Under the pieces are notes generated by a model. That model had not been told where the DNA came from and ran no database searches. It saw only the letters and a program-made list of their open reading frames with translations. From contig JAPCJI010000011.1 of NCBI GenBank assembly GCA_027887005.1, positions 1-39,236 on the forward strand: DNA of 39,236 bases. Reading direction: 5' to 3'. Below, in pieces: positions 7,047 to 21,097 of this stretch. The number at the start of each line of letters is the position of its first letter. Position 1 is the stretch's first letter. A program made the translations under genes and the position numbers. This DNA comes from Nitrososphaerota archaeon (GTDB taxonomy: Archaea; Thermoproteota; Nitrososphaeria; Nitrososphaerales; Gagatemarchaeaceae).

Positions 7047-8288
7047 TCAGCGAAGCGACCCCTTCCAGAAATCCGGGACCCTGCTGGGGTAGACCACTTC
7101 CTTCGCGCCGAGGAACCCGCCAAGGTCTTCAATGGCCCTCGCGACCTCGTCAGCGGCCTGCCTGTCGTGGGGAGCCCCCTTCTCAGCGTGAACAGCGTTG
7201 ACGACCAGCCTCTTCCCTCTTCTGTCCATGACAGGGTCGACTCTGCCGATCAACCGGTCCCCCTGCAGGATTGGGAGGACGTAGTAGCCGTGGGTCCGCT
7301 TGTGCTTGGGGGTGTAGATCCCTATCCTGTAGTGGAATCCAAAAAGTGCGTCCGTCCTGTCTCTGTCGCAGATCAGGTTGTCGAAGGGAGAAAGCAACGT
7401 CGTCCTCGGCCTCCAGCGTCCTGACTCGATGCGGTCGAGCAGCTTCAGGTCGTCCGAATGCACGTAGTACTGCTCCTTCTCCCCTTCCACCTGGACCCGC
7501 TCGACCTTCGATTCATCCTCCAGACGTTGGAGGGTCCCGACTAGGTTCGGGTATCTCCCCCGAAGGAAGTGGAACCTGATATTGGCCTTGGTCGCCATAC
7601 CGAGTGCCTTGATTGCCCTCTGGACGGCGTGATGCTCTACCTCCTCTTCGGTCAGGTCTCCTTTCTCTGTCCAGGCAGGGAGGAACTCCTCCGTAAGCCC
7701 CCAGACCTTCTGTATCCCCTGCCGCCCGACGACCATGATATCGCCCCGGAAGAAGAGATATGTGAGCATCCGGGAAACGTCGCTCGAAGAACTCCACCCC
7801 ATGGTATGCTTGTTCATGCGGGGTTTTTCGAACTGTCTCGAAAGGCGCGGCCCCCTTTTCAGTTCGTCCAGGATGTACTGCTTCACCTTGGCGTTCTCCC
7901 TTACCCATTCCTTGACTCTGGCCCCCCACAGCGGAGAGATCGGCGCGTCGTCCGGCCAGTTCTTCATCATCGGATAATACAGCGGGTAGTCTTCGGTGAG
8001 GACGATCGAGGCTCTGTGCGCCCAAAACTCGAAGAGCTTCTTTTCCTTCCAGAGGAGCTTGTCCAACTCCGAAAGGGCATAGCTCCCCAGCCGGCTCCAT
8101 AGCACAGTCTGGTGACTCGGAGCGACCGCGCTGATCGGGTCGAGCTGTAGGCATCCGATGTCCCGGATCACTTGGAGAATCCGCGCTGCGTCATGCTTCG
8201 TCCTGGATTCGTCCGCAAGATGCTGCTTGACTATGGAAAGCCTTCTCGCAGACTCGCGCGAAGTGACGATTCCGGCCCTAGGGGACAA
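7047..8288 (-). CDS. YcaQ/AlkX-family DNA glycosylase (winged-helix, HTH_42)
   Basis: 413 aa, matching the family of DNA glycosylases that unhook interstrand crosslinks and remove bulky alkylated bases. Near the N-terminus it carries the family's Q-hydrophobic-D catalytic motif as QLD (48-50) in CLQLDPISAVAPSHQTVL. Further family features are FEFWAHRASIVL, a winged-helix repeat region, and a late LLSPFDNLICDRDR segment. It lies upstream of fumC on the same strand with a 52-bp gap and is preceded by the Fe-S carrier gene. No signal peptide or membrane segment. Substrate range cannot be read from the sequence. Confidence 0.85.
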   Translation of the reverse strand: MSPRAGIVTSRESARRLSIVKQHLADESRTKHDAARILQVIRDIGCLQLDPISAVAPSHQTVLWSRLGSYALSELDKLLWKEKKLFEFWAHRASIVLTEDYPLYYPMMKNWPDDAPISPLWGARVKEWVRENAKVKQYILDELKRGPRLSRQFEKPRMNKHTMGWSSSSDVSRMLTYLFFRGDIMVVGRQGIQKVWGLTEEFLPAWTEKGDLTEEEVEHHAVQRAIKALGMATKANIRFHFLRGRYPNLVGTLQRLEDESKVERVQVEGEKEQYYVHSDDLKLLDRIESGRWRPRTTLLSPFDNLICDRDRTDALFGFHYRIGIYTPKHKRTHGYYVLPILQGDRLIGRVDPVMDRRGKRLVVNAVHAEKGAPHDRQAADEVARAIEDLGGFLGAKEVVYPSRVPDFWKGSLR

Positions 8289-8345
8289 ACGGTGCGGGGT
8301 GTCGGCCAGCTGAAATAATCGTTGCGAAGCTGAAGGGATTGGAGC

Positions 8346-8705
8346 CTAGTGGCCGCCGTGGTTGCCGCCGCAGCCGCACTCTTCCGCGTGGACGTTGGGG
8401 TTCTCGATCTTGAAGCCAGTCCTCTGAAGGCCTTCTACGAAGTCAATCTTGGACCCCCTGATCAGCTCTTCGTCTGCCTTCCCCACAACGACCTTGAATC
8501 CGCCGACCTTCTCGAAGACGTCGGTTTCAGCGGGCTTCTCTTCCAGGCTGAGAGCGTACCTGTATCCGCCGCTGCAGGCGCAGCCGCCACCCTGGTAGAC
8601 CTCGATCCTCAGATACGAGTCTGAAGCCTTCTCCGCCTCAAGGACCTTGCTCAACCGCTCCTCCGCAATGGACGTGAAGTTCACCAAAGGCTGCATTTTT
8701 TGCAT
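8346..8705 (-). CDS. A-type iron-sulfur cluster carrier (HesB/IscA/ErpA family)
   Basis: 119 aa, carrying and delivering Fe-S clusters to apoproteins. The three family cysteine sites are visible: the first within GGGCACSGGY (Cys42 and Cys44) and the C-terminal ECGCGG pair (Cys110 and Cys112). An extra Cys in the first motif and a His-rich tail (NHGGH) are unusual. Clients in this window would include the radical-SAM AmrS. Start is ATG 8705, with ATG 8696 as an alternative. A TATA-like element (8731-8740) lies about 30 bp upstream. Confidence 0.92.
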   Translation of the reverse strand: MQKMQPLVNFTSIAEERLSKVLEAEKASDSYLRIEVYQGGGCACSGGYRYALSLEEKPAETDVFEKVGGFKVVVGKADEELIRGSKIDFVEGLQRTGFKIENPNVHAEECGCGGNHGGH

Positions 8706-9216: not shown

Positions 9217-10836
9217 TTGCCTGATTCTGACATGCCCGAGAAGAAGGCGCCTGCGGCTTTCGTAAGGGAGAGCACAGGTCTGGTAAAGAATGTCTCCTTC
9301 ATCGACACCATCTCGCTCAACCTCAGCAACATGTCGATTGGGCCGCTGCTGACGACCATAGCCGGCTCTACAGTCGCCACGCTCTTCATCGTCCCGACGG
9401 TTACCGGACTTAACCTCGTCGCGGCCTCGATTATTGCCTTCATCCTCTCGATTCCCCAGGTGATTGTTTACACGATGATGTCCCGGCGCTTCCCAAGAAC
9501 CGGCGGAGATTACGTCTGGATCTCCAGGACCTTCGGCGGGTTCTTCGGCAGCACGATGTCATTCTTTGGATATACTATGGAGACGCTCGCGTTCCTCGCC
9601 CTTGTCGCGGTGTTGACCGATTTCGCAATCGGAAGCGTCGGGCTGACCATGGCTTTCTCCTACTACGGCTACACGGGGACGGGTGCGCTCCCGATATTCA
9701 ACTGGTTCAGCCTCTTTTCAGACCCGACTACGCAGTTCCTGGTCGGGGCGATACCCTTCGCCGGCGTCATCCTCCTGAACATCTGGAAGCCGAAGGCAGG
9801 GTACAGGCTCGTGTCTGCCCTGACGATCTTCGGGGTGTTCGCCCTCCTGCTGGCCATCGGGACTCTCCTTTGGGCAGGCCAAGCTGGCGTGCAGAACTAC
9901 ATCAACGGCAATGCCCCGTTCTTGCAGTACGGCGGGGCTAACTCGACCTATCAGGCGTTGGCGAGCTCCTACAAGCCGTCCAGCCTCCCGTTCGACATCA
10001 ACTTCTCGAACGTTCTCTACATCATGCCTGTGATGTTCGCCTTCGTCTATCCCTGGCTCAACGCTGCCCCGGCGGTTGCGGGTGAGATCAAGGGCCAGAG
10101 AGCACTGAAGTGGAACGTCCCGATTTCAGCGATAACCGCTTTCGGTCTGCTGACCTTGGCGCTGGGCGTCCTCTACTACGTGGCGGGAATGCCCTTCGTG
10201 AACGCGGCCTTCAGTAGCCATGCATGGAGCGTCGCTGGGTTGAACTTCTTCACCCTCGCCATGGCAGTGTCTGGGAACGTCTATGTCGCTTGGATAATCG
10301 GCCTGGGGCTAATCCTGATGCAGTTCGGCACCATCGCCTACGGAGTCATAGTCTTCTCGAGATACCTGCTGGCGCAGTCATTCGACAGGTTCCTCCCGTC
10401 TAAGCTCTCCTACGTCAGCCCAAGGTTCGGCTCTCCCATCGTCGCGATGCTGGTCGACCTGGTGATCGCCGTCGGACTCATCGCCCTCGCGACCTACTTC
10501 TACGGGAGCTTCTCGGCACTCTTCAGCGCGATCCTAGCCTCGATGATCTACTTCGTATTCATCGGGCTGGCCGCCGCAACCCACGCCTTCAGGAATGAGA
10601 AGGGGGGCGCGAGGGTACTCCTCGGCACGGCTGGGATACTCAGCGCTGGCGTCTTCGCGTTCATCTCCTACCAGTACCTCACCAGTCCCACCTTCGCCAT
10701 CTTCAACTGGATCAACGAATCATACCTCATAATCACGCTGATTGGCGGCGCGGTGATCTACCTCGCCTCGTGGCAGTATCACAAGAGAAAGGGAATCGAC
10801 ATTTCCCTCAACTACAAGGAACTTCCGCCCGAGTAA
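9217..10836 (+). CDS. APC-superfamily amino acid/amine permease
   Basis: 539 aa, almost entirely hydrophobic helices (about 12 membrane segments), with the amino acid-polyamine-organocation fold. The first segment region reads NLSNMSIGPLLTTIAGS, followed by RRFPRTGGDYVWISRTFGG, which matches the conserved APC stretch after TM2 (P.xGGxYxW.SR). The C-terminal tail is short and charged (NYKELPPE). It imports an organic nitrogen compound by H+ or Na+ symport; the substrate is unknown. The stop is 12 bp before the Rieske oxygenase start, so the two are an operon and the permease may import that enzyme's substrate. Confidence 0.88.
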   Translation: MPDSDMPEKKAPAAFVRESTGLVKNVSFIDTISLNLSNMSIGPLLTTIAGSTVATLFIVPTVTGLNLVAASIIAFILSIPQVIVYTMMSRRFPRTGGDYVWISRTFGGFFGSTMSFFGYTMETLAFLALVAVLTDFAIGSVGLTMAFSYYGYTGTGALPIFNWFSLFSDPTTQFLVGAIPFAGVILLNIWKPKAGYRLVSALTIFGVFALLLAIGTLLWAGQAGVQNYINGNAPFLQYGGANSTYQALASSYKPSSLPFDINFSNVLYIMPVMFAFVYPWLNAAPAVAGEIKGQRALKWNVPISAITAFGLLTLALGVLYYVAGMPFVNAAFSSHAWSVAGLNFFTLAMAVSGNVYVAWIIGLGLILMQFGTIAYGVIVFSRYLLAQSFDRFLPSKLSYVSPRFGSPIVAMLVDLVIAVGLIALATYFYGSFSALFSAILASMIYFVFIGLAAATHAFRNEKGGARVLLGTAGILSAGVFAFISYQYLTSPTFAIFNWINESYLIITLIGGAVIYLASWQYHKRKGIDISLNYKELPPE

Positions 10837-11837: not shown

Positions 11838-12029
11838 CAGACCTTCTCCTTCATCGCCAACGTTACCGGGTCCTTCAGTATATACTGCGACATCTTCTGC
11901 CCGATTCACTGGGCGATGCAGAGCAGAGCCCTCTTGGCTAGTCGATTGTGGGCGAAGTCGTCCAAACCACAAATGTAGGAGATTCTGACATGATTCTGAA
12001 GTAGCCTTATAGAGAAAATCTTCAGTCAT
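11838..12029 (-). pseudogene. Possible decayed ORF upstream of the cupredoxin gene
   Basis: On the minus strand, one frame reads like protein-coding sequence (GLDDFAHNRLAKRALLCIAQ, a TGA, then IGQKMSQYILKDPVTLAMK and a stop at 11838-11840). A possible N-terminus lies in another frame (MTEDFLYKATSESC from 12029), so a frameshift plus a nonsense codon would be needed. It may be a relic of a divergent regulator gene mirroring the arrangement at 16888-17313, or chance. No product is claimed. Confidence 0.3.
11981..12017 (+). promoter_or_regulatory. Operator/promoter block of the cupredoxin gene
   Basis: Two direct repeats, GATTCTGACAT (11981-11991) and GATTCTGAA (11992-12000), lie exactly one 11-bp step apart. 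They are followed by GTAGCC and the TATA-like CTTATAGA (12005-12012), about 27 bp before GTG 12036. A nearly identical 37-bp block occurs at 17257-17293 (about 30 of 37 positions identical). The repeat lies where an archaeal activator, or a repressor competing with TFB, would bind. Confidence 0.65.
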
Positions 12030-12035
12030 TCATCC

Positions 12036-12449
12036 GTGCAAACAGCCCGACCGACGAAAGGAGGGAGAGGCAGAACCATAGCCATCATCGGCGTCGTGAT
12101 TATCATCGCGGTTGCAGCGGGAGCATATTACTTCTTCACTTCTCGCCCACGGACTGTACCAGTGACCATCCCGAACGGAATAAGCTCCAACCAGACCCTC
12201 AACTTTACCCCGAAGGCTATCACCGTCGTGGTCGGAGTGAACAACACGATCCAATGGACAAACCAAGATTCTGCAGCACACACCGTCACCTCCACCTCGA
12301 TCCCATCAGGGGCAAGTTCCTTTGATTCAGGCAACCTGAACGCCGGCGCAACCTTCACGGTCACCCTGACCACCCCCGGGACCTACCATTACCTTTGCTC
12401 CATCCACCCCGCGTGGATGATAGCGACAATAATCGTAAAGTCTGGCTAG
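12036..12449 (+). CDS. Membrane-anchored cupredoxin (type 1 blue copper protein)
   Basis: 137 aa from GTG, apparently leaderless. A single N-terminal membrane segment (about residues 13-34) is followed by an extracytoplasmic beta-barrel domain. Type 1 copper ligands are visible: His82 in SAAHTVTS, then Cys121, His124 and Met128 in YLCSIHPAWM, spaced as in plastocyanin/amicyanin-like proteins. It probably shuttles electrons at the outer face of the membrane; such cupredoxins are abundant in Nitrososphaeria. The 3' end overlaps the convergent membrane protein gene by 4 bp. Expression likely depends on the upstream tandem-repeat operator. Confidence 0.92.
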   Translation: MQTARPTKGGRGRTIAIIGVVIIIAVAAGAYYFFTSRPRTVPVTIPNGISSNQTLNFTPKAITVVVGVNNTIQWTNQDSAAHTVTSTSIPSGASSFDSGNLNAGATFTVTLTTPGTYHYLCSIHPAWMIATIIVKSG

Positions 12450-13321
12450 ACCTGAGCGGCAGACCTACGGGTTTCATCCAGTACGACGCACCCTTCTCTG
12501 AACACTCTCCCGAGACTTCGTGAAATCAGATAGGGTGTGGCCAGGAGGACCGGAAGGCTGAGGAGTATGAAGACCGGCTGGTAATACGCCAGGAGAACGG
12601 CAAATGAGACGGCCCCTCCGCCGCCCAGCACATTGGCGAAGAACAGTCCGGCACAGGTAGGGCAGCCAGTGAAGAGGCCTACCATGGCCCCCAACCCTCC
12701 CACCCAACCTCTCCCAACTCCTTTGGCTCGGCTGTCGAAGGCGAACGCCACCAGCGCGAAGTTCAGGCCAACCAGGGTCGAGGTCGCCAGAAGGAGCAGT
12801 ACGGTCAGTGGTATCAAAAGGAGTCCGAGGTGGTTGACCACGTAGACAGTGACCACAGGCGAATAGAGTGGAGCTCCGCAGCAGGCAGTGACGACGGCCG
12901 AAGGCAAGCTGGCACCGTAGGCCTGTCCGAAGTCAACTCCGGGCTGATAGACAATCATACTGGTAATCGCCGCATAGAAAAGTCCGTAAAGAACTGCCGC
13001 AGCTACGAAGTAACGCCGGTACTTCTTGACTGACAGGACGTGGGGTATCAACCACGCAGGCGACAACGGGGTGACTCCTCTGGCCACAGTCGTCCTCTGT
13101 CTGCTCGCCACTTCCTCTCGCAGGCCGAGGAACACCATCGCTACGCCTACCAGCAGAACCACCAGGTAGGTTTCGGCCACCAGAGTGAAGAACGCTGCCC
13201 GCTGAGGCGTTACGAATGCCATGAACCCTTCCTCGTTGACATAGATGAAGGTCGACGCCGCGGCCACAGCCACACCAATCAGAATCACAATGGGAACCGC
13301 CTGCCAGAAACGACCGCTCAT
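12446..13321 (-). CDS. Polytopic membrane protein with ACCGAP and GCPTCAG motifs
   Basis: 291 aa with about 6-7 predicted membrane helices. I do not recognise a named family. Two cysteine motifs stand out in mid-membrane context: TACCGAPLYS near residue 146, and FTGCPTCAGLFFANVLGGGGA near residue 219, a CxxC flanked by glycines. Paired cysteines could bind copper or haem iron or do disulfide chemistry. Its position tail-to-tail with a cupredoxin makes a role in copper handling or respiratory-complex assembly plausible but unproven. GATTCTCAGATTCAG on the minus strand (13322-13336) directly precedes the ATG and recalls the cupredoxin operator. Confidence 0.8.
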   Translation of the reverse strand: MSGRFWQAVPIVILIGVAVAAASTFIYVNEEGFMAFVTPQRAAFFTLVAETYLVVLLVGVAMVFLGLREEVASRQRTTVARGVTPLSPAWLIPHVLSVKKYRRYFVAAAVLYGLFYAAITSMIVYQPGVDFGQAYGASLPSAVVTACCGAPLYSPVVTVYVVNHLGLLLIPLTVLLLLATSTLVGLNFALVAFAFDSRAKGVGRGWVGGLGAMVGLFTGCPTCAGLFFANVLGGGGAVSFAVLLAYYQPVFILLSLPVLLATPYLISRSLGRVFREGCVVLDETRRSAAQV

Positions 13322-13405
13322 CTGAATCTGAGAATCACGCGGCCGGTTCGTTCGTTAAAGGTTTCTGGGCAACGCTAACATTGCGCCGCTTATTGGCCAC
13401 TGCCG

Positions 13406-13993
13406 ATGGAGTTCGAGGAGACGGTCCGCAAGAGGAGGATGGTCAGGCACTTTTCCGGTCGGCCAGTTCCCGAAGCAGCCGTCAAGCGCATAATGGAGCT
13501 CGCCCAGCACGCACCGAGCGCAGGCTTCAGCCAGGGAAGCGCCTACGTGGTGGTTACTCAGAAAGCCCTGAAGAAGAAGGTCGCCCGACTCCAGGGCGAG
13601 GTCGGATACACGAAGGGTGGTTTCCACCAGTGGATCTCAGAGGCACCAGTCGACATCGTCGCCTGCGTCAGCGAGAAGCTGTACCACGACAGATACAACG
13701 AACCCGACAAACTACAGAACGGCAAGGAGATTGACTGGCCGACTCCCTACTGGTTCTTCGACATCGGCGCCGGGTGCATGACCATCCTCCTCGCAGCGGT
13801 CGACTCGGGACTTGCTGCAGCCTTTTCCGGCGTGTTCGATCCGGCGGCAATGAGAAAGCTCCTGGGAATCCCCCGTCACTTCCATCCAGTCGGCGTAATT
13901 TCCATTGGCCACCCAGCCAAGGACAAGAGGTCTCCGTCCCTGAAAAGGGGAAGGCGGCCCTCCAATCAGGTGGTTCACTACGGGAAATGGTGA
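13406..13993 (+). CDS. Nitroreductase-family FMN-dependent oxidoreductase
   Basis: 195 aa. The FMN-binding N-terminus RKRRMVRHF, the APSAGFSQG loop, a mid-protein GCMTILLAAVDSGLAAAFSG helix and the C-terminal VGVISIGHPAK strand are all typical of the NfsB/BluB-like nitroreductase superfamily, which works as dimers with FMN and NAD(P)H. Natural substrates are unknown. The gene stands alone between a divergent membrane protein and a convergent tRNA gene. Cytosolic. Confidence 0.88.
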   Translation: MEFEETVRKRRMVRHFSGRPVPEAAVKRIMELAQHAPSAGFSQGSAYVVVTQKALKKKVARLQGEVGYTKGGFHQWISEAPVDIVACVSEKLYHDRYNEPDKLQNGKEIDWPTPYWFFDIGAGCMTILLAAVDSGLAAAFSGVFDPAAMRKLLGIPRHFHPVGVISIGHPAKDKRSPSLKRGRRPSNQVVHYGKW

Positions 13994-14060
13994 ATGCGAG
14001 CCCTGAGAGATTTGCCGAAGATTCTTGACCCGAACCAGGCAATCGGCCAATTTGTAAGGA

Positions 14061-14171
14061 AGCCGGCGGAGGGCTACCCGCCTGCCGAAGCAGGTTTCGA
14101 TCCCTCGACCCCACGCTTACGAGGCGTCTGAGCCCCCTGCGGTGTGCTCTACTAGGCTGAGCTACGCCGGC
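14061..14171 (-). tRNA. tRNA-Thr(CGT) with two non-canonical introns
   Basis: Acceptor GCCGGCG/CGCCGGC with discriminator T, D-stem GCTC/GAGC, anticodon loop CTCGTAA (anticodon CGT), variable loop GGGTC, T-stem GAGGG/CCCTC. The gene is 111 nt, about 37 nt too long. About 16 nt interrupt the 5' strand of the anticodon stem; removal restores CACGC/GCGTG. About 21 nt sit in the T-loop after ATCGAA, containing CCTGC-TTCG-GCAGG, a UUCG-capped hairpin. Removal gives a 74-nt tRNA with a 7-nt T-loop. Neither intron is at position 37/38. Confidence 0.85.
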
Positions 14172-14256
14172 TCAATCTCGACCCGAGCCGACTGGGCGTT
14201 AAATCCTTGCTCCTGCGGAAAGGGTTTTAGAATTGAGAAGAAAGGCCTCACTTTGC
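14172..14256. promoter_or_regulatory. Back-to-back tRNA promoters
   Basis: ATTTAACG on the minus strand (about 14188-14195) lies about 20-25 bp upstream of tRNA-Thr. TTTTAGAA on the plus strand (14225-14232) lies about 28 bp upstream of tRNA-Leu. Both fit archaeal TATA boxes. Confidence 0.5.
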
Positions 14257-14341
14257 GCGGGGGTCGCCCAGCATGGTCAACGGCGTGGGACTGAGGCTCC
14301 CATCCCTTAGGGGTTCGTGGGTCCAAATCCCACCCCCCGCA
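14257..14341 (+). tRNA. tRNA-Leu(GAG)
   Basis: 85 nt, class II with a long variable arm. Acceptor GCGGGGG/CCCCCGC with discriminator A, anticodon stem TGGGA/TCCCA, loop CTGAGGC (anticodon GAG), variable arm near TCCCTTAGGGG, T-loop TCCAAAT within GTGGG/CCCAC. No intron. Confidence 0.93.
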
Positions 14342-14371
14342 TTAATCTAGTCCGGCCCTGGCCGCACTGTC

Positions 14372-15166
14372 GTGGCGCGCAATTCCACACCACCCGCCTA
14401 CCCATTCAACCCGCCCCTGTCGGAAGGGATTGTGATGTCCCGGCCCAACAGGTTTGTCATGATGGTGCAGTCCAAGGGCCGTACGCTGAGATGCCACTGC
14501 CCGACCACCGGCAGACTCGGCGACCTCGACCTACACGGCATCCCCTGTCTGTTTTCCAATGCCCGGAACACTGCTCGGAAGACGGCCTTCACCGTCGAGG
14601 CGGTCTCAGCAGGTAAGACTCGAGAAAGGCCGAAGTCCTGGATCGGGATCAATCAGACCGCCGCCAACCGATATATCGAACATCTCCTAAGAACAGGACA
14701 ACTCTCCAGGATGGTCAAAGGAGAAGTGAAGCGGGAGGTGAGACTCGGCTCTTCGAGAATTGACTTCCAAGTTGGACGGACCTACCTCGAAGTCAAAACT
14801 CCTCTGATTGTCCTACCTTCCGCGCCCGGGGTTCGATCAGTGAGCAGGAGCAGGTTCAACTCCTATGACCGCTTGATCAAGCACATGACCGAACTAAGCA
14901 AGTCTCTCAAGGACGGGAAGCGTGCAGTCATCGTCATGTGCTACCTCTATGACGCCAAACGGTTCAAACCGCCGTCAGGCGACAGCGACAACTCCCGAAT
15001 CCTGGACGTGGCCCGGAAGGCGGAGGAAACCGGGGTCGAGACCTGGCAGGTCAACTTGAACCTCGACAGGAACGGAGTCACTCTGAACAAGTACTTCAGA
15101 AACCACTTGTTCTCCCGGAGCCGCACCAGAGATCATTCCAGTAGCGGACCAGAATCGCATAAGTAG
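14372..15166 (+). CDS. sfsA: SfsA-family DNA/RNA nuclease-like protein
   Basis: 264 aa, matching the SfsA family, originally called sugar fermentation stimulation protein: an OB-like N-terminal domain plus a PD-(D/E)xK nuclease-like domain. Signs: LSEGIVMSRPNRF near the N-terminus, CHCPTTGRLGDL (family H.PNTGR.xEL), RKTAFTVEAVSAG, and the nuclease core SRIDFQVGRTYLEVKTPLIVLP with acidic D..E-x-K residues. Start GTG 14372 is about 27 bp after a TTAAT element at the tRNA-Leu 3' end, so the mRNA is probably leaderless; an in-frame ATG at 14435 is less likely. Physiological role poorly defined. Confidence 0.85.
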   Translation: MARNSTPPAYPFNPPLSEGIVMSRPNRFVMMVQSKGRTLRCHCPTTGRLGDLDLHGIPCLFSNARNTARKTAFTVEAVSAGKTRERPKSWIGINQTAANRYIEHLLRTGQLSRMVKGEVKREVRLGSSRIDFQVGRTYLEVKTPLIVLPSAPGVRSVSRSRFNSYDRLIKHMTELSKSLKDGKRAVIVMCYLYDAKRFKPPSGDSDNSRILDVARKAEETGVETWQVNLNLDRNGVTLNKYFRNHLFSRSRTRDHSSSGPESHK

Positions 15167-15189
15167 CTACTCCCGCAAGAACGCGCCTG

Positions 15190-16869
15190 TTGCAGCCCGG
15201 AGCCAGCGATTTCCTGGGGAACCTCGCGAAAAAGTACTGGGATGTACGCATGTCCGCCGACCCACTTTTCGCGACGGTCATAGGCGACCGGCGTTTCAGC
15301 GACCGTCTCCCAGACATAACCCCTGAGGCACTTTCGCAAGTCGAAGGCAAGTACAAGTCAATTCTGACCCAGTGTCACGCAATGCCCGCAGATTCGCTTT
15401 CCGTTCGAGGCAGGCTGACTAGGACAGCTCTCCTGGAAGAGGTGAGTGCACAGCTAGACTACCTGTCGTGCCGCCTAGGAGATTGGACCGTGGACCCACT
15501 CCAGGGACCACAGATTGAGTTTCTGAACATGGAGTCCTATCAGCCTGCAGGGACTCCTGCGGAGGCGAATGCCATGGTAAGCCGATGGAACGGGATAGGC
15601 CATTTCTTCGACGACCACATCGCAAACCTTCGTCGAGGCCTCGGAGAGGGCAGGGTGACAGTCCGCGACTGCGCCCAAAAGGTCATCGACGAAATTCACG
15701 ACCTGAAAGGCAGGCCTGACGCCGAATGGGCGATGCTCCGCCCGCTATCCGCCAATCACGAAGACTGGTCCGAGGTCGAACGGCAGGAGTTCCGAGACCG
15801 AATTCTACTGACCTTCAACGAATCAATCCGCCCCGGCTACATCAGGTACTTCGAGTTCCTAGAAACCGAAGTTCTGCCATCCGCCCGCCTGCAGGACCAC
15901 CCCGGAATAATGCACATCCCCGGGGGAGTCGAATCCTACTCTCGCCTGATACGCGTCCACACTTCTCTCAACCTCGCCCCCGACCACCTGCACCAGACGG
16001 GGCTCCAGGAGGTCGCGAAAATCAACAAGGAAATAGAGGTTCTCGGAGGTCGAGCCTTCGGCACAGGAGATAGGAAGCAGATCCTCCACAGGCTGAGAAC
16101 TGACCCGTCATTGTACTTCTCCACCAGAGACGAAGTGGCCGAGAAAGCGGCGACCGCCCTGGCCAAGGCCAGGGACGCCATCAAGAACTGGTTCGGGAGG
16201 CTCCCGAGGGCCGAGTGTGAAGTGGTGCGCATGGAGGAGCACGAAGAGAAGAACTCGACCATCGCCTACTACCGCCAGCCCGCGGCGGACGGCTCAAGGC
16301 CTGGCCGCTACTACATCAACACCTCCGAGCCTGAGACCAGACCCCGCTACGAAGCCGAAGTGCTCGCCTACCACGAATCGATTCCAGGACATCATCTACA
16401 GATTGCCATAGCTCAGGAACTAGAGGGAATCCCGGAGTTCCGTAGGCAATCAGGGGTGACCGCATTCGTGGAAGGATGGGGGCTCTACACCGAACGCCTG
16501 GCGGACGAAATGGGCCTCTACTCGTCCGACCTCGACCGGATCGGCGTCCTCTCCTACGATGCCTGGCGAGCGTGCCGGCTAGTCGTTGACACAGGTATGC
16601 ATGCGAAGGGCTGGACACGCCAGCAGGCAATCGACTTCATGTTTGAGAACACGGCCCTGGCAAAGAACAACATAGTGAACGAAGTGGACAGGTACATCAC
16701 TTGGCCAGGACAGGCCTTGGCCTACAAGACGGGGCAGCTCGAAATGATGCGGCTAAGGCAAGAATCACAGAAGAAACTCGGCGAAGAGTTCGAAATCAAG
16801 AAGTTCCACGACTCGTTGCTGAGTAATGGGGCACTCCCTCTTGAGGCACTCCGCGAAGTGCTGCAATAG
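15190..16869 (+). CDS. DUF885-family putative metallopeptidase
   Basis: 559 aa from TTG 15190 (leaderless; ATAAG near 15160). The diagnostic zinc motif AYHESIPGHHLQIA is at about 393-406, with a downstream Glu-rich helix containing FVEGWGLYTERLADEMG. Earlier family features are DPLFATVIGDRRF near the N-terminus and YYRQPAADGSRPGRYYIN. DUF885 proteins are helical zinc-dependent carboxypeptidase-like enzymes; substrates are largely unknown. No signal peptide here, so it is probably cytosolic and could act in peptide turnover. It stands alone, convergent with the winged-helix regulator. Confidence 0.88.
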   Translation: MQPGASDFLGNLAKKYWDVRMSADPLFATVIGDRRFSDRLPDITPEALSQVEGKYKSILTQCHAMPADSLSVRGRLTRTALLEEVSAQLDYLSCRLGDWTVDPLQGPQIEFLNMESYQPAGTPAEANAMVSRWNGIGHFFDDHIANLRRGLGEGRVTVRDCAQKVIDEIHDLKGRPDAEWAMLRPLSANHEDWSEVERQEFRDRILLTFNESIRPGYIRYFEFLETEVLPSARLQDHPGIMHIPGGVESYSRLIRVHTSLNLAPDHLHQTGLQEVAKINKEIEVLGGRAFGTGDRKQILHRLRTDPSLYFSTRDEVAEKAATALAKARDAIKNWFGRLPRAECEVVRMEEHEEKNSTIAYYRQPAADGSRPGRYYINTSEPETRPRYEAEVLAYHESIPGHHLQIAIAQELEGIPEFRRQSGVTAFVEGWGLYTERLADEMGLYSSDLDRIGVLSYDAWRACRLVVDTGMHAKGWTRQQAIDFMFENTALAKNNIVNEVDRYITWPGQALAYKTGQLEMMRLRQESQKKLGEEFEIKKFHDSLLSNGALPLEALREVLQ

Positions 16870-16887
16870 CAGAATCTCCTTAGTTCA

Positions 16888-17301
16888 TCACCGATCTTCT
16901 GTCTTAGCCAAATCCAGATGCAACTCATCTGAAATCCTCTTGAAAATATCGATGCTCGCCTCCAGCCTGGGGGAAAGGAAGTACATGGCGCCGTACTTCT
17001 CTCCTTGGGTAACAACCAGGGAATTTGCCTTCAGTACTTCTACATGGTGGGTGATTGTCCTGTAGTCGACGCCGAGCTTCTCCGCCAACTGGTTTAGGTT
17101 CAGAGGCCTGAGACTGAGCTCATGAATGATTCGCGCACGGTTCTCGCCGCCCCTCGCACCGCCCAGGACGTACCAAAGCACGCGTTTCAGCTCATGGTCT
17201 TCAGGCAAGGAGGCTCCACATGTCGCTTCCGCGAACTTATAGGTCGAACTACCCAGGATTTTGAAGAGATTCTGAAATAGCCTTTTAGACAAACGAGGCA
17301 T
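16888..17301 (-). CDS. Winged-helix (ArsR-like) transcription regulator
   Basis: 137 aa. An N-terminal extension of about 45 residues, then a winged HTH: GGENRARIIHELSLRPLNLN, LAEKLGVDYRTITHHVEVLK as the recognition region, then the wing LVVTQGEKYGAMYFLS. The C-terminal amphipathic helix ends DLAKTEDR. No ligand cysteines are obvious. It is divergent from the three-TM gene with only 11 bp between the start codons. The tandem GATTYTGA operator for that gene lies inside this gene's first codons, so binding there would affect both genes. Autoregulation and control of the glycan operon are inferred. Confidence 0.88.
   Translation of the reverse strand: MPRLSKRLFQNLFKILGSSTYKFAEATCGASLPEDHELKRVLWYVLGGARGGENRARIIHELSLRPLNLNQLAEKLGVDYRTITHHVEVLKANSLVVTQGEKYGAMYFLSPRLEASIDIFKRISDELHLDLAKTEDR
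17257..17293 (+). promoter_or_regulatory. Operator/promoter block of the three-TM/glycosyltransferase operon
   Basis: GATTTTGAAGA (17257-17267) and GATTCTGAA (17268-17276) are tandem repeats one 11-bp step apart. They are followed by ATAGCC and the TATA-like CTTTTAGA (17282-17289), about 27 bp before ATG 17313. The block closely matches 11981-12017 in sequence and in distance to the start codon (19 versus 18 nt). It lies within the 5' coding part of the divergent winged-helix gene. Confidence 0.65.
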
Positions 17302-17312
17302 GAATCGATAGG

Positions 17313-17591
17313 ATGACTCCTCTCCTAGTGCTCGCGATAGCCCTCTATTCGGCTAACGCGGTTCTATTCGGATTCCTCGCCCATGTGTATGGAAAGACTG
17401 CCCTCTCGACAAAAGCGAAGTACGCTACTGGACTGTTCGTCTTCTCGCTTCTCCTAGTAGTTCAGAGCTTAGGAACAGCAATAGCCTACACTTCCTTTTC
17501 AGCATATCTTGACGACGCTGCACCCTATTGGTCGATCATGGGTTCCTTCGAGCTCGTCGGGGTACTCGCTCTGCTGAGGATTACCCTATGA
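17313..17591 (+). CDS. Small three-TM membrane protein paired with a winged-helix regulator
   Basis: 92 aa with three hydrophobic helices (about 3-25, 38-60, 72-90) and an N-terminus that starts directly in the first helix. No catalytic motif. Small three-helix proteins next to winged-helix genes are recurrent in archaea, where the membrane protein may sense or sequester the regulator; that is inference. The gene's TGA overlaps the next gene's ATG (ATGA, 17588-17591), indicating translational coupling to the glycosyltransferase. Confidence 0.8.
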   Translation: MTPLLVLAIALYSANAVLFGFLAHVYGKTALSTKAKYATGLFVFSLLLVVQSLGTAIAYTSFSAYLDDAAPYWSIMGSFELVGVLALLRITL

Positions 17592-18523
17592 GCCTGACTG
17601 AACACATCACCTCTCCTTCAGACTGCACCGTAGGAATCTGCGCCACGGGCCAGGCTGAAGACACGCCAGCTCTCGTAAGTCTCGTCCTCGCGGAGAGCTT
17701 CCCTGAAGGACTTCAGTTGAAGAAAGTGATTGTCGTCGCGAGCGAGTGCTCTGAAACAACAGTCTCGAAACTGAGGGCAATCCAGAAGCAAGAGAACCGG
17801 GTGCAACTCGTCTCCGAAGAGGTAAGACACGGCAAAGCAGATGCGATAAACAAGATCCTGACTCAAGCCAAAGGAGACATGATTGTCTTCGTAAACTCCG
17901 ATGCCCATCCTCAGTCCGGGGCGATATCTCATTTGCTTTCAATCCTCACCGCCGACGGACGCGTGGGCGCTGTCTCGGCGATGCCGGTAACCCAGCGCGC
18001 CGCAGGGGTGGCCTTCTCCATCGCAGACCTGATGTGGGCCACGCACAACCAATGCTCCCTCACGCTGAACCACATGAACCTGTCAAACCACACCTGCGAC
18101 GAGCTCGTAGCATTCAGGTCGAAGGCCCTGACACTGCTCCCGGAAGGCCTCGTCAACGACGGCGCATTCATGGCCTCGACCGCCCGAAGGAAGGGGTACA
18201 CAGTGAAATTCTCCACCGCGGCCAAAGTGGGGATTGAGACACCACAAAGGGTCTCCGACCTGATCGGCCAACGGAGGCGCATCCTGTTCGGTCACGCCCA
18301 GGTCTGGCGCAGAGTTGGGAAACCGCCAAGGACCGTCGAGTCTCTCTTGGTCTTCTCGCCATCGATTGGACTGAGGCTCCTCACCACGACAGTATCGAGG
18401 TGCCCTAGGTATCTTCTCGTGCTCCCCGTCGCCGTGGTGACCGAGTTTGTGGCCTCTGTCCTGGCTGTCTGGGATGGGCTCCGTTCGACGAAGAGGCATA
18501 CCGTCTGGAGGAGGTTCACTTGA
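17588..18523 (+). CDS. Family 2 glycosyltransferase
   Basis: 311 aa from ATG 17588, chosen because ATGA overlaps the upstream stop; a longer frame to 17528 lies inside the preceding gene. GT-A features: VGICATGQAED N-terminal strand, RHGKADAINKIL (nucleotide-binding K/N region), FVNSDAHPQSGA as the DxD-like motif, LPEGLVNDGAFM as the acceptor/catalytic acidic region, and QRRRILFGHAQVWRR late. The C-terminus has one or two hydrophobic helices, suggesting membrane association. It probably adds a sugar to a lipid-linked or surface glycan. Ends with a TTGA overlap into the next gene. Confidence 0.85.
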   Translation: MSLTEHITSPSDCTVGICATGQAEDTPALVSLVLAESFPEGLQLKKVIVVASECSETTVSKLRAIQKQENRVQLVSEEVRHGKADAINKILTQAKGDMIVFVNSDAHPQSGAISHLLSILTADGRVGAVSAMPVTQRAAGVAFSIADLMWATHNQCSLTLNHMNLSNHTCDELVAFRSKALTLLPEGLVNDGAFMASTARRKGYTVKFSTAAKVGIETPQRVSDLIGQRRRILFGHAQVWRRVGKPPRTVESLLVFSPSIGLRLLTTTVSRCPRYLLVLPVAVVTEFVASVLAVWDGLRSTKRHTVWRRFT

Positions 18524-19431
18524 CCCTTTCAGAGAGCAGCGCGGCTCGGATCTCCCTTCTAGTCGACGTGGCTAGGAGGCAAGGCTCCCTCATTTCGCTC
18601 CGCGAACTCCTGCCCCTCCTAAACGAGAGGACAACCGAAGCGGAACTCGCTGAAGCCTTCGACACCTTTCCTGTTCTCGGTTCCAAGTTCGAGCTGAAAT
18701 CGGGGTACGTCACAGCGAAGTCAAGTGCCGTCAGGGAGGCCCTGCTCAACAAGGAAAGAGGAAACAGGAAGGTGGCCGCGAGGAACCTGTCATATGCTGC
18801 CCAATTCATGCCCCTGATTCGTTCGAGCCCGTTCCGCATGGTCGCCGTAAGCGGGTCGACCTCCTACATGTCCAGCTCGCAATCACGTGACCTGGATCTG
18901 TTCTGCGTGGCCCCGCGGGGCAGAATGTGGTTCTCCCTCGCACAGGCTCTCCTGTTGGCGAGAGTCTTCAACCTAACAAGGTCCGCGGCACCTCAGCTCT
19001 GCCTCAGCTGTGTGATGGACCAAGACTACGCAGAATCAATCTTCGCAAATGAGCAGGACGCTCTGTTCGCGAGAGACGCTTTGGCGTCCGTAGTTCTGAT
19101 GGGTCGAGACACCTATGGATCGTTGCTGCGAAGTGCGAGTTGGATTCAATCGTTATACCCGGGTGCCTACTCCTTGCGCAGCAGACAGGTTTCGCCCACA
19201 ACCGCACCCCAGAGATGGGCGAGGTCATATGAGTTGGTCCTTGACCGGTTCCTCTATGTTGTCGTCGGTTCCTTCATCAAGATGAAGGCTTTCATCCTCA
19301 ACCGGAAACTCGCAGGCCGTCAGAGAAGGGAAGGGGTTTTCAGGATCCGTGCAGGGTATGACCACCTCATCTACGAATCAGCCAGGTACGCCGGGCTCAG
19401 GGCCGCCTATGCCGCTGTTCGCGCCGAGTGA
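18520..19431 (+). CDS. Nucleotidyltransferase-fold protein with N-terminal helix-turn-helix-like region
   Basis: 303 aa starting at TTG 18520, overlapping the upstream stop by 4 bp. Residues about 10-70 resemble a winged helix. Residues 108-130 read VAVSGSTSYMSSSQSRDLDLF, the GS(x)nDxD signature of the polymerase-beta nucleotidyltransferase superfamily (Gly112-Ser113; Asp124 and Asp126). The rest is helical and I recognise no named family. Coupled to a glycosyltransferase, it may be a sugar nucleotidyltransferase-like or regulatory enzyme; substrate not inferable. Confidence 0.75.
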   Translation: MTLSESSAARISLLVDVARRQGSLISLRELLPLLNERTTEAELAEAFDTFPVLGSKFELKSGYVTAKSSAVREALLNKERGNRKVAARNLSYAAQFMPLIRSSPFRMVAVSGSTSYMSSSQSRDLDLFCVAPRGRMWFSLAQALLLARVFNLTRSAAPQLCLSCVMDQDYAESIFANEQDALFARDALASVVLMGRDTYGSLLRSASWIQSLYPGAYSLRSRQVSPTTAPQRWARSYELVLDRFLYVVVGSFIKMKAFILNRKLAGRQRREGVFRIRAGYDHLIYESARYAGLRAAYAAVRAE

Positions 19432-19525: not shown

Positions 19526-21097
19526 ATGCTTGCCGCACCAGGTCTGTCGATCGCAGGTATCCTGCTTCTGCTTTCAGTCCTTCTGAGCGTTGCCTTCTTC
19601 GTCTACGGTCTGAACACGTTGCATCTGACCCTAAGGTCCAGGCGGTACAGATTACCGGAGATGGCCCCGCTCACCAGCAGGCCTCCGGTGGCAATACATC
19701 TTCCAATCTACAACGAATTGTACGTCGTCGGCAGGCTGCTGAAGTCCTGTGTAGGCGTCGCAGATCGCTACGGAATGGGCCTGGTCAGGATCTTCGTCAT
19801 CGATGATTCCACCGACGAGACGCGCGAAGAGATTGACCGCTTGGCCTCCGACTACTCTGCCCAGGGCTACAAATTCAAGGTTATCAGGCGAGGAAGCCGG
19901 GCCGGTTTCAAGGCGGGGGCTCTCCAGACAGCCCTTGAGCAGACCCAGGAAACGTACGTGGCCATCCTCGACGCTGACTTCGTCCCTCCGGCCGACTTCC
20001 TCGAAAGGACCGTCTCCGTGATGGAGAACGACGCGGACGTCGGGTTCGTGCAGGGGAGGTGGGGCCACCTGGACAGGAACTACAATACCGTCACCGAATC
20101 CGTGGCGATTGGGGTAGACGCCCACTTCTACCTAGAACAGCAGGGAAGGAACGGCAGCGGCTACCTGATGAACTTCAACGGAAGTGCAGGCGTCCTCCGG
20201 ACCGACGCCATAAGGAAGGCCGGGGGGTGGGCTTCGGACACCCTCGCAGAAGACCTCGACGTGAGCTACAGAATCCAGTTGGGTGGTTACAGGGGGGTCT
20301 ACCTGAACGACCTAGAGGTTCCTGCGGAAGTTCCCCCCACAATCGCCAGCATCAAGCGACAGCAGGGAAGATGGGCGAGGGGGTCGTTGCAGACTGCCAA
20401 GAAACTCCTGGGCAGGATTTGGAGAACCAAGAACCTATCGACGGGTCAGAAGGTCGAGGCGGGGATTCATCTGACCTACTACCTTGTACATCCTCTGATG
20501 GTCGCCTCGTTCATCCTTGTGGTGGTCGCTGATTTTCTCTCTCTGGATGCGATCCGCTACGGTGTCCAAGTGGGAGTCCCGACATTATCGATGGCGTCGG
20601 GTTCGGCTAGCATCACCATTGAGACCATACAGGTCGTGCCATGGCTGGTCTTCTCAGCACTGATCGTCCTGTCGACCCTATCGGTGCTGATGTACTGCGT
20701 GCAGGCGGTCAGGGTCCAGAAGCTGGGTCTCTTCGCGAACCTGAGGAAGATAGCGTTCCTCGTCGTCCTTGGTTATGGGATGAGCATCAGCAATTCAGTC
20801 CAGGCGCTCAACGGTCTTCTGTCAAGTGAGACCGGCACTTTCTCTCGGACGCCAAAGTATGCCGTGGTCCATACGGGCGAAGATTGGAGCAAGAAGAAGT
20901 ACCAGATTCCGTTGAACTCCACGACCTTCCTTGAGGCAGGAGCAGTCGTGCTAGCCATATTCGCATCCGGGTGGGCGGTCTTGACTGGGAACCTGGGGAT
21001 TCTTCCGATCTTGTTTGTCTATCTAACAGGCTATGCATTTATACTCTATCTTACCATTCGACAGAAGATCGAATCTGGGGGGCATCGCGACGCCTAG
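19526..21097 (+). CDS. Processive-type membrane glycosyltransferase, family 2 (cellulose synthase/glucomannan synthase-like)
   Basis: 523 aa. N-terminal membrane helix (about 7-30). Catalytic GT-A domain with IDDSTDET (Asp93-94), ILDADF (Asp149, Asp151), TLAEDLDVSYRI (catalytic Asp243) and QQGRWARG (QxxRW, 279-283). Four or five C-terminal membrane helices follow. This D,D,D,QxxRW layout is typical of beta-glycan synthases and related lipid glycosyltransferases. A non-coding gap of 94 bp precedes it; it could still be part of the same transcript as the upstream genes. Likely makes or extends a surface polysaccharide or glycolipid. Confidence 0.9.
   Translation: MLAAPGLSIAGILLLLSVLLSVAFFVYGLNTLHLTLRSRRYRLPEMAPLTSRPPVAIHLPIYNELYVVGRLLKSCVGVADRYGMGLVRIFVIDDSTDETREEIDRLASDYSAQGYKFKVIRRGSRAGFKAGALQTALEQTQETYVAILDADFVPPADFLERTVSVMENDADVGFVQGRWGHLDRNYNTVTESVAIGVDAHFYLEQQGRNGSGYLMNFNGSAGVLRTDAIRKAGGWASDTLAEDLDVSYRIQLGGYRGVYLNDLEVPAEVPPTIASIKRQQGRWARGSLQTAKKLLGRIWRTKNLSTGQKVEAGIHLTYYLVHPLMVASFILVVVADFLSLDAIRYGVQVGVPTLSMASGSASITIETIQVVPWLVFSALIVLSTLSVLMYCVQAVRVQKLGLFANLRKIAFLVVLGYGMSISNSVQALNGLLSSETGTFSRTPKYAVVHTGEDWSKKKYQIPLNSTTFLEAGAVVLAIFASGWAVLTGNLGILPILFVYLTGYAFILYLTIRQKIESGGHRDA

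What the first reader, a model, noticed from the sequence alone, without database searches (positions are those of the whole stretch)
11981..17293. A 37-bp tandem-repeat promoter block shared by a cupredoxin gene and a winged-helix/three-TM/glycosyltransferase module
Seen: 11981-12000 reads GATTCTGACATGATTCTGAA and 17257-17276 reads GATTTTGAAGAGATTCTGAA. Both are 11-bp-spaced direct repeats followed by TAGCC and a TATA-like CTTWTAGA, and both lie 18-19 nt before a start codon. Neither flank is otherwise similar. The second copy lies within the 5' codons of a divergent winged-helix gene. GATTCTGACATG (12 identical bases) also occurs exactly at the start of the permease operon (9223-9234), and GATTCTCAGATTCAG abuts the start of the Cys-motif membrane protein (13322-13336, minus). 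Inference: these are sites of one regulator, probably the winged-helix protein at 16888-17301, linking copper electron transport, uptake/oxygenation and surface glycan synthesis in one small regulon.
Basis: partly seen in the sequence, partly recalled or inferred. Interest (0 to 1): 0.75.

Follow-up and report, generated by a model that had tools for sequence, protein, structure and literature searches.

The report
Archaeal two-promoter copper-protein/glycan regulon
In an uncultured soil archaeon, a small DNA-binding protein probably controls two promoters through a repeated 11-bp sequence next to the promoter core: one for a copper electron carrier, the other for a membrane-protein and sugar-polymer operon beside the regulator's own gene. 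The same wiring recurs in related genomes.

Summary
Two copies of GATTYTGA-n3-GATTCTGA fused to a BRE/TATA core (11981-12013, 17257-17289) are the only such sites in the 1.6-Mb genome. The window belongs, by kinship, to the Gagatemarchaeaceae (Thaumarchaeota group I.1c). In relatives the element recurs between a 106-aa winged-helix gene and a divergent three-TM gene, and upstream of one cupredoxin gene. Three pattern scans of 46 family genomes gave 16, 11 and 17 hits; reversed-pattern controls gave none. Besides the window, four genomes have a cupredoxin promoter with the element; in a fifth the regulator is directly divergent from a cupredoxin. A paralogous regulator subfamily carries a correspondingly changed tandem (GATTTGGA). 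TATA spacing is the same in all 36 regulator/3TM loci.

Three details fail. Copy 2 is intergenic (true start TTG 17208). The permease site (9223) lies in coding sequence and the Cys-protein site (13322) is not conserved. 'Glycan regulon' rests only on the operon downstream.

Most likely mode: BRE-proximal activator working like EarA or TFB-RF1. This is inferred; binding, direction and signal are untested.

The parts
11981..11999 (+). Tandem half-sites of copy 1: GATTCTGA cat GATTCTGA (11-bp period)
   Evidence: unique in genome except copy 2
12000..12013 (+). BRE/TATA core of the cupredoxin promoter (AGTAGCCTTATAGA)
   Evidence: fixed spacing to half-site in relatives
12036..12449 (+). Membrane-anchored cupredoxin, target 1, GTG start 22 nt after the block
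   Evidence: Pfam Copper-bind/Cupredoxin_1
16888..17208 (-). Winged-helix (ArsR-fold) regulator, 106 aa, start TTG 17208 (not ATG 17301)
   Evidence: orthologue starts, AF2 pLDDT 90, Foldseek CzrA/SmtB, Pfam HTH_20
17236..17243 (-). TATA-like element of the regulator's own divergent promoter (CCTATAAG on minus)
   Evidence: sequence; similar position in orthologues
17257..17275 (+). Tandem half-sites of copy 2: GATTTTGA aga GATTCTGA, intergenic
   Evidence: conserved at this place in relatives
17276..17289 (+). BRE/TATA core of the 3TM operon promoter (AATAGCCTTTTAGA)
17313..17591 (+). 92-aa three-TM membrane protein, first gene of target operon; constant neighbour of the regulator
   Evidence: AF2 three helices, pLDDT 93; no Pfam or PDB match; 36 loci
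17588..18523 (+). GT2 glycosyltransferase, overlaps 3TM stop (ATGA)
   Evidence: Pfam PF13641/PF00535
18520..19431 (+). 303-aa protein with nucleotidyltransferase-like GS...DxD signature (from reading the sequence; no Pfam match)
   Evidence: conserved in operon
19526..21097 (+). CelA/PgaC-like membrane GT2 glycosyltransferase, probably same operon (94-bp gap before it)
   Evidence: Pfam and NCBIfam; synteny

Best explanation
The 33-bp block is a regulatory promoter module. Two GATTNTGA half-sites 11 bp apart, on one face of the helix, abut the BRE/TATA core and are bound by the 106-aa ArsR-fold winged-helix protein encoded next to copy 2. The protein most likely acts as an activator that recruits or stabilises TFB/TBP (inferred; this is how EarA and TFB-RF1 work). 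It switches on its divergent neighbour, the 3TM-glycosyltransferase operon, together with one cupredoxin gene elsewhere. Shown: the element, its uniqueness, its conserved placement, its co-occurrence with the regulator, its recurrence at cupredoxin genes, and the matched change of site in the paralogous regulator subfamily. Inferred: physical binding, activation, and physiological meaning (adjusting a copper electron carrier and a cell-envelope module to one unknown signal, possibly relayed by the 3TM protein).
For: Only two sites in the genome, both at promoters. In 46 family genomes 16 class-A hits, reversed control 0: 13 at the regulator/3TM promoter, 2 at cupredoxin promoters; looser pattern 17 hits, control 0: 14 regulator/3TM and 3 cupredoxin promoters, nothing else. 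Cupredoxin promoters in G025, G004, G023 and, with a class-B site, G027; regulator directly divergent from a cupredoxin in G026. Paralogous regulators with helix Y-K carry GGA/CGA half-sites, Y-R ones TGA, 34 of 34 loci. Class-B pattern: 11 hits, control 0. Half-site to TATA spacing identical in 36 of 36 loci. Regulator has a DNA-binding ArsR-type winged-helix fold.
Against: No binding or expression data. The Y-R/Y-K and TGA/GGA change is one event on the tree. Fixed spacing may partly reflect BRE-TATA spacing. The weak-BRE test was inconclusive. ArsR-fold proteins are usually repressors. G004 and G023 cupredoxin sites were first found by a targeted scan before the genome-wide one, and the pattern was designed after seeing them. 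The G026 and G023 cupredoxin sites have a degenerate upstream half. For half of the class-A genomes no cupredoxin site was found.
Confidence: 0.63

Rival explanations
1. Same regulator and sites, but as a repressor: the protein bound at the BRE-proximal tandem excludes TFB until a signal (perhaps relayed by the 3TM membrane protein) releases it.
For: The downstream half-site touches the BRE (GAAATA); ArsR-fold proteins (nearest structures CzrA, SmtB) are typically repressors; regulator and main target are divergent, as in many autorepressor loci.
Against: The site lies upstream of TATA/BRE at a strictly fixed distance in 36 loci, the activator position in archaea (PMC5937170, PMC5512572). No Cys or conserved metal ligands for a classical ArsR switch.
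Confidence: 0.22
2. A different DNA-binding protein (for example a TFB paralogue or another winged-helix protein) binds the element, and the adjacent winged-helix gene is merely one of its targets.
For: No binding data; the genome has another related winged-helix gene (C5:2563, 43% identity).
Against: The site tracks the presence and the subfamily of the adjacent regulator; adjacency is kept in 36 loci. The C5 paralogue has no 3TM neighbour.
Confidence: 0.1
3. The blocks are a local duplication or chance promoter similarity without regulatory meaning.
For: Both copies lie within 5.3 kb of each other, so a stretch could have been copied.
Against: Flanks are dissimilar and linkers differ while half-sites are kept. 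The same pairing recurs in other genomes at unlinked places with cupredoxins that do not form one clade; reversed-pattern controls are zero.
Confidence: 0.03

Closest known systems
EarA (euryarchaeal archaellum activator; PMC5512572, PMC10665913)
   Same: Winged-helix regulator; short motif repeated one to four times immediately upstream of BRE/TATA at fixed distance; thought to help recruit TFB.
   Different: EarA motif is TACATA-like and its target the archaellum operon; here GATTNTGA in an 11-bp tandem with cupredoxin and 3TM/GT targets, in Thaumarchaeota. Sequence kinship to EarA was not tested.
TFB-RF1 (PF1088, Pyrococcus furiosus; PMC5937170)
   Same: Activator site just upstream of BRE and TATA; controls its own operon plus one distant operon, a two-target regulon.
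   Different: TFB-RF1 recognises a palindrome TCTG-N5-CAGA; here direct repeats. Activation shown there, inferred here.
ArsR/SmtB metal sensors (CzrA, SmtB)
   Same: Winged-helix fold (Foldseek E about 1e-5; Pfam HTH_5/HTH_20).
   Different: No cysteine, no conserved alpha3/alpha5 metal ligands, below the NCBIfam metalloregulator cut-off.
ArnR/ArnR1 (Sulfolobus membrane-bound regulators; PMC6396743)
   Same: HTH regulator tied to a membrane part, two boxes in the target promoter.
   Different: ArnR has HTH and TM segments in one protein and inverted-repeat boxes; here HTH and 3TM are separate divergent genes with direct repeats.
Copper-limitation motif regulons of Nitrososphaera viennensis (PMC7785015)
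   Same: Shared promoter motifs in Thaumarchaeota with ArsR-type regulators and copper proteins discussed.
   Different: Different motif, different class of targets, ammonia oxidiser; no match to GATTCTGA tandems.

Membership tests
ArsR/SmtB family (as fold) | ArsR-type winged-helix domain | tested here: met
   AF2 model pLDDT 90; Foldseek best hits CzrA, SmtB; Pfam HTH_20 above, HTH_5 at its cut-off
ArsR/SmtB metal sensors | Conserved Cys/His metal ligands | tested here: not met
   No Cys in the 106-aa protein or in most orthologues; no conserved alpha5 D-x-H...H pattern; NCBIfam HTH_metalloreg 33.7 bits against cut-off 55
BRE-proximal archaeal activators (EarA/TFB-RF1 type, functional class) | Binding sites directly upstream of BRE/TATA at fixed distance | tested here: met
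BRE-proximal archaeal activators (EarA/TFB-RF1 type, functional class) | Target promoters have a weak BRE | tested here: inconclusive
   Basal motif from about 250 upstream regions is too weak to rank the BREs
BRE-proximal archaeal activators (EarA/TFB-RF1 type, functional class) | Regulator stimulates transcription / recruits TFB | not testable with these tools
   needs in vitro transcription
EarA family | TACATA-like repeats upstream of the archaellum operon | tested here: not met
   Repeats are GATTNTGA; targets are cupredoxin and 3TM/GT genes
EarA family | Sequence orthology to EarA | not tested
   EarA sequence not compared
Cupredoxin (plastocyanin/azurin) family, for the six target genes | Cupredoxin domain | tested here: met

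The most novel reading that the evidence does not exclude
A previously undescribed archaeal signalling module: a one-domain winged-helix activator plus a divergent three-TM membrane partner of no known family. It has duplicated into subfamilies with separate, matched tandem operators and repeatedly captured different periplasmic redox proteins (cupredoxins; in the class-B subfamily possibly a molybdopterin oxidoreductase cluster) as targets. The 3TM protein would be the sensor or modulator of the regulator.
Probability: 0.3. Interest if true: 0.75.

Novelty: new member of a known kind. Interest (0 to 1): 0.56.

Why it matters
Little is known about transcription control in the uncultured group I.1c Thaumarchaeota. 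Here a regulator, its operator and a two-promoter regulon can be read from sequence with strong comparative support, and the operator differs in step with a paralogous regulator. This gives a small, directly testable DNA-binding specificity system (a few helix residues against TGA/GGA) and places a copper electron carrier and a cell-envelope operon under one control.

Tried and rejected
Permease site 9223 and Cys-protein site 13322: not conserved, wrong place or spacing. The extra 1-mismatch tandem at G000:C4:43999 has no TATA core. Most single-mismatch tandem hits in other families fall inside open frames without TATA. Weak-BRE hypothesis: basal motif built, inconclusive; the first attempt picked up coding-like sequence and was discarded. 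DUF7521-type membrane family, recalled from memory as possibly similar to the 3TM protein: no Pfam match even at E 10, no paper. 3TM fold search: no significant structure. No Rfam family in the region; no match of the module in phage records.

Full report
What was checked. They share two octamers 11 bp apart and a TATA-like element at the same distance, followed by a start codon 22-23 nt on (GTG 12036, ATG 17313). In the 1.6-Mb assembly these are the only two matches to the tandem, and the only two to the whole 33-bp pattern even with three mismatches; the reversed pattern gives none. A weaker tandem at C4:43999 has no promoter core.

Identity of the organism. Relatives with the same locus include contigs of Thaumarchaeota SubAcS15-57, REEA66 and NC_groundwater_1048. 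SubAcS genomes are described with the Gagatemarchaeaceae (group I.1c) in PMC10640624. The family assignment of the window is therefore by kinship, not by a direct record.

The regulator gene. Orthologues begin at a conserved x-[E/D]-D-x-E-L, which gives TTG 17208 here, 106 aa. Between 17208 and 17313 lie two divergent promoters: CCTATAAG on the minus strand for the regulator and CCTTTTAG on the plus strand for the three-TM gene. The tandem lies between them and is phased to the 3TM promoter. So copy 2 is intergenic. The protein models as an ArsR-type winged helix (nearest solved structures CzrA and SmtB). It has no cysteine and no conserved metal ligands, so it has the fold but not the defining features of a metal sensor.

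Footprint in relatives. In 46 family genomes the pattern GATTnTGAnnnGATTnTGAAn5CTTAWA with up to three mismatches hits 16 places; the reversed pattern hits none. Thirteen are the promoter of the 3TM gene beside the regulator's orthologue; in G016 both copies lie at contig ends that cut off the regulator. A second, looser pattern gives 17 hits, control 0: fourteen 3TM promoters and three cupredoxin promoters, nothing else. Genomes without a close regulator orthologue do not carry the element, apart from one unclear three-mismatch hit in G043.

Recurrent cupredoxin target. Besides the window, the element lies upstream of a cupredoxin in G025 (C18:89209), G004 (C1:23719, start 25 nt downstream) and G023 (C66:50112, start 25 nt downstream). 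In G026 the regulator is directly divergent from a cupredoxin with a degenerate tandem between them. A class-B tandem precedes a cupredoxin in G027. All are Pfam cupredoxins and they do not form one clade (modest support), so the link was probably made more than once. G025 and G027 came from unbiased pattern scans. G004 and G023 were first found by scanning 40 cupredoxin upstream regions with a matrix built only from 3TM-promoter sites: they score 29.4 and 25.2, the next best 8.2; the genome-wide scan, whose pattern was designed after that, then recovered them and nothing unrelated. My rough estimate: with about 0.5% of genes encoding cupredoxins, two cupredoxins among the four unbiased hits that are neither 3TM promoters nor the discovery case has a chance probability near 1e-4.

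Matched paralogues. Several genomes carry a second regulator/3TM pair, whose regulator is 44-50% identical. Its promoter has the same layout but a different octamer: GATTTGGA (class B). A class-B pattern gives 11 hits, control 0, nearly all beside such regulators. Across 36 regulator/3TM loci, helices with Y-R carry TGA and helices with Y-K carry GGA or CGA (34 of 34 loci with both traits scored). On the tree this is a single change, so it counts as one event. It still means that in genomes with both classes each regulator sits beside its own type of site. The distance from the half-site to the TATA is seven nucleotides in all 36 loci.

Mechanism. Sites directly upstream of BRE, repeated with helical phasing and at invariant distance from TATA, are the layout of archaeal activators that recruit TFB or TBP: EarA (PMC5512572, PMC10665913), TFB-RF1 (PMC5937170), Ptr2. 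I therefore favour activation (about three to one over repression), but the downstream half-site touches the BRE and ArsR-fold proteins are mostly repressors. The weak-BRE argument could not be settled. Binding itself is inferred.

What the regulon does. Target one is a membrane-anchored cupredoxin. Target two is the 3TM protein followed without gap by a GT2 glycosyltransferase, a protein with a nucleotidyltransferase-like GS..DxD signature but no Pfam match, and a CelA/PgaC-like GT2. The first three genes of this order are conserved in most class-A loci. In class-B loci the 3TM gene stands without these GTs, so the 3TM protein is the constant partner and the glycan genes are an addition in class A and its nearest kin. 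In SubAcS15-57 a class-B 3TM gene is followed by a secreted protein and a molybdopterin oxidoreductase. A homologue of that secreted protein carries a weak class-B-like site in G032. A common theme of periplasmic redox proteins is possible but not proven.

The permease site at 9223 is a single half-site in coding sequence and not conserved as a site. The 13322 site at the Cys-rich membrane protein has a different spacing and is not conserved. The permease/Rieske operon should not be placed in this regulon.

Verdict. A real, conserved promoter element with a strongly implicated local regulator and a two-promoter regulon. The mechanism resembles known archaeal BRE-proximal regulators; regulator, operator, 3TM partner and regulon are undescribed as far as the papers searched show.

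Noticed in passing
L151 (2791-3072 minus), L158 (4435-4716 minus): Class-B 3TM genes of SubAcS15-57 are followed by a secreted protein and a molybdopterin (sulfite-oxidase-like) oxidoreductase; a homologue of the secreted protein in G032 has a class-B-like tandem upstream (L178).
   Followed up: partly
L122 (G076) 7449-8531: In a neighbouring family a cupredoxin gene lies about 300 bp downstream of the 3TM gene on the same strand, another link between the pair and cupredoxins.
   Followed up: no
window 14063-14172 (minus): Looks like an intron-containing tRNA gene on the minus strand next to tRNA-Leu 14257-14341; ARAGORN with the bacterial setting and Rfam at gathering score do not list it.
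   Followed up: partly
window 12446-13321 (minus): Multi-TM protein with conserved-looking CC and GCPTC motifs, no Pfam or NCBIfam match, kept beside the Rieske oxygenase in relatives.
   Followed up: partly
L110 and L111 (G009): One genome carries two copies of the whole class-A regulator/3TM/GT locus.
   Followed up: no
window 18520-19431: 303-aa protein between two glycosyltransferases has a nucleotidyltransferase-like GS..DxD signature but matches no Pfam or NCBIfam model.
   Followed up: partly
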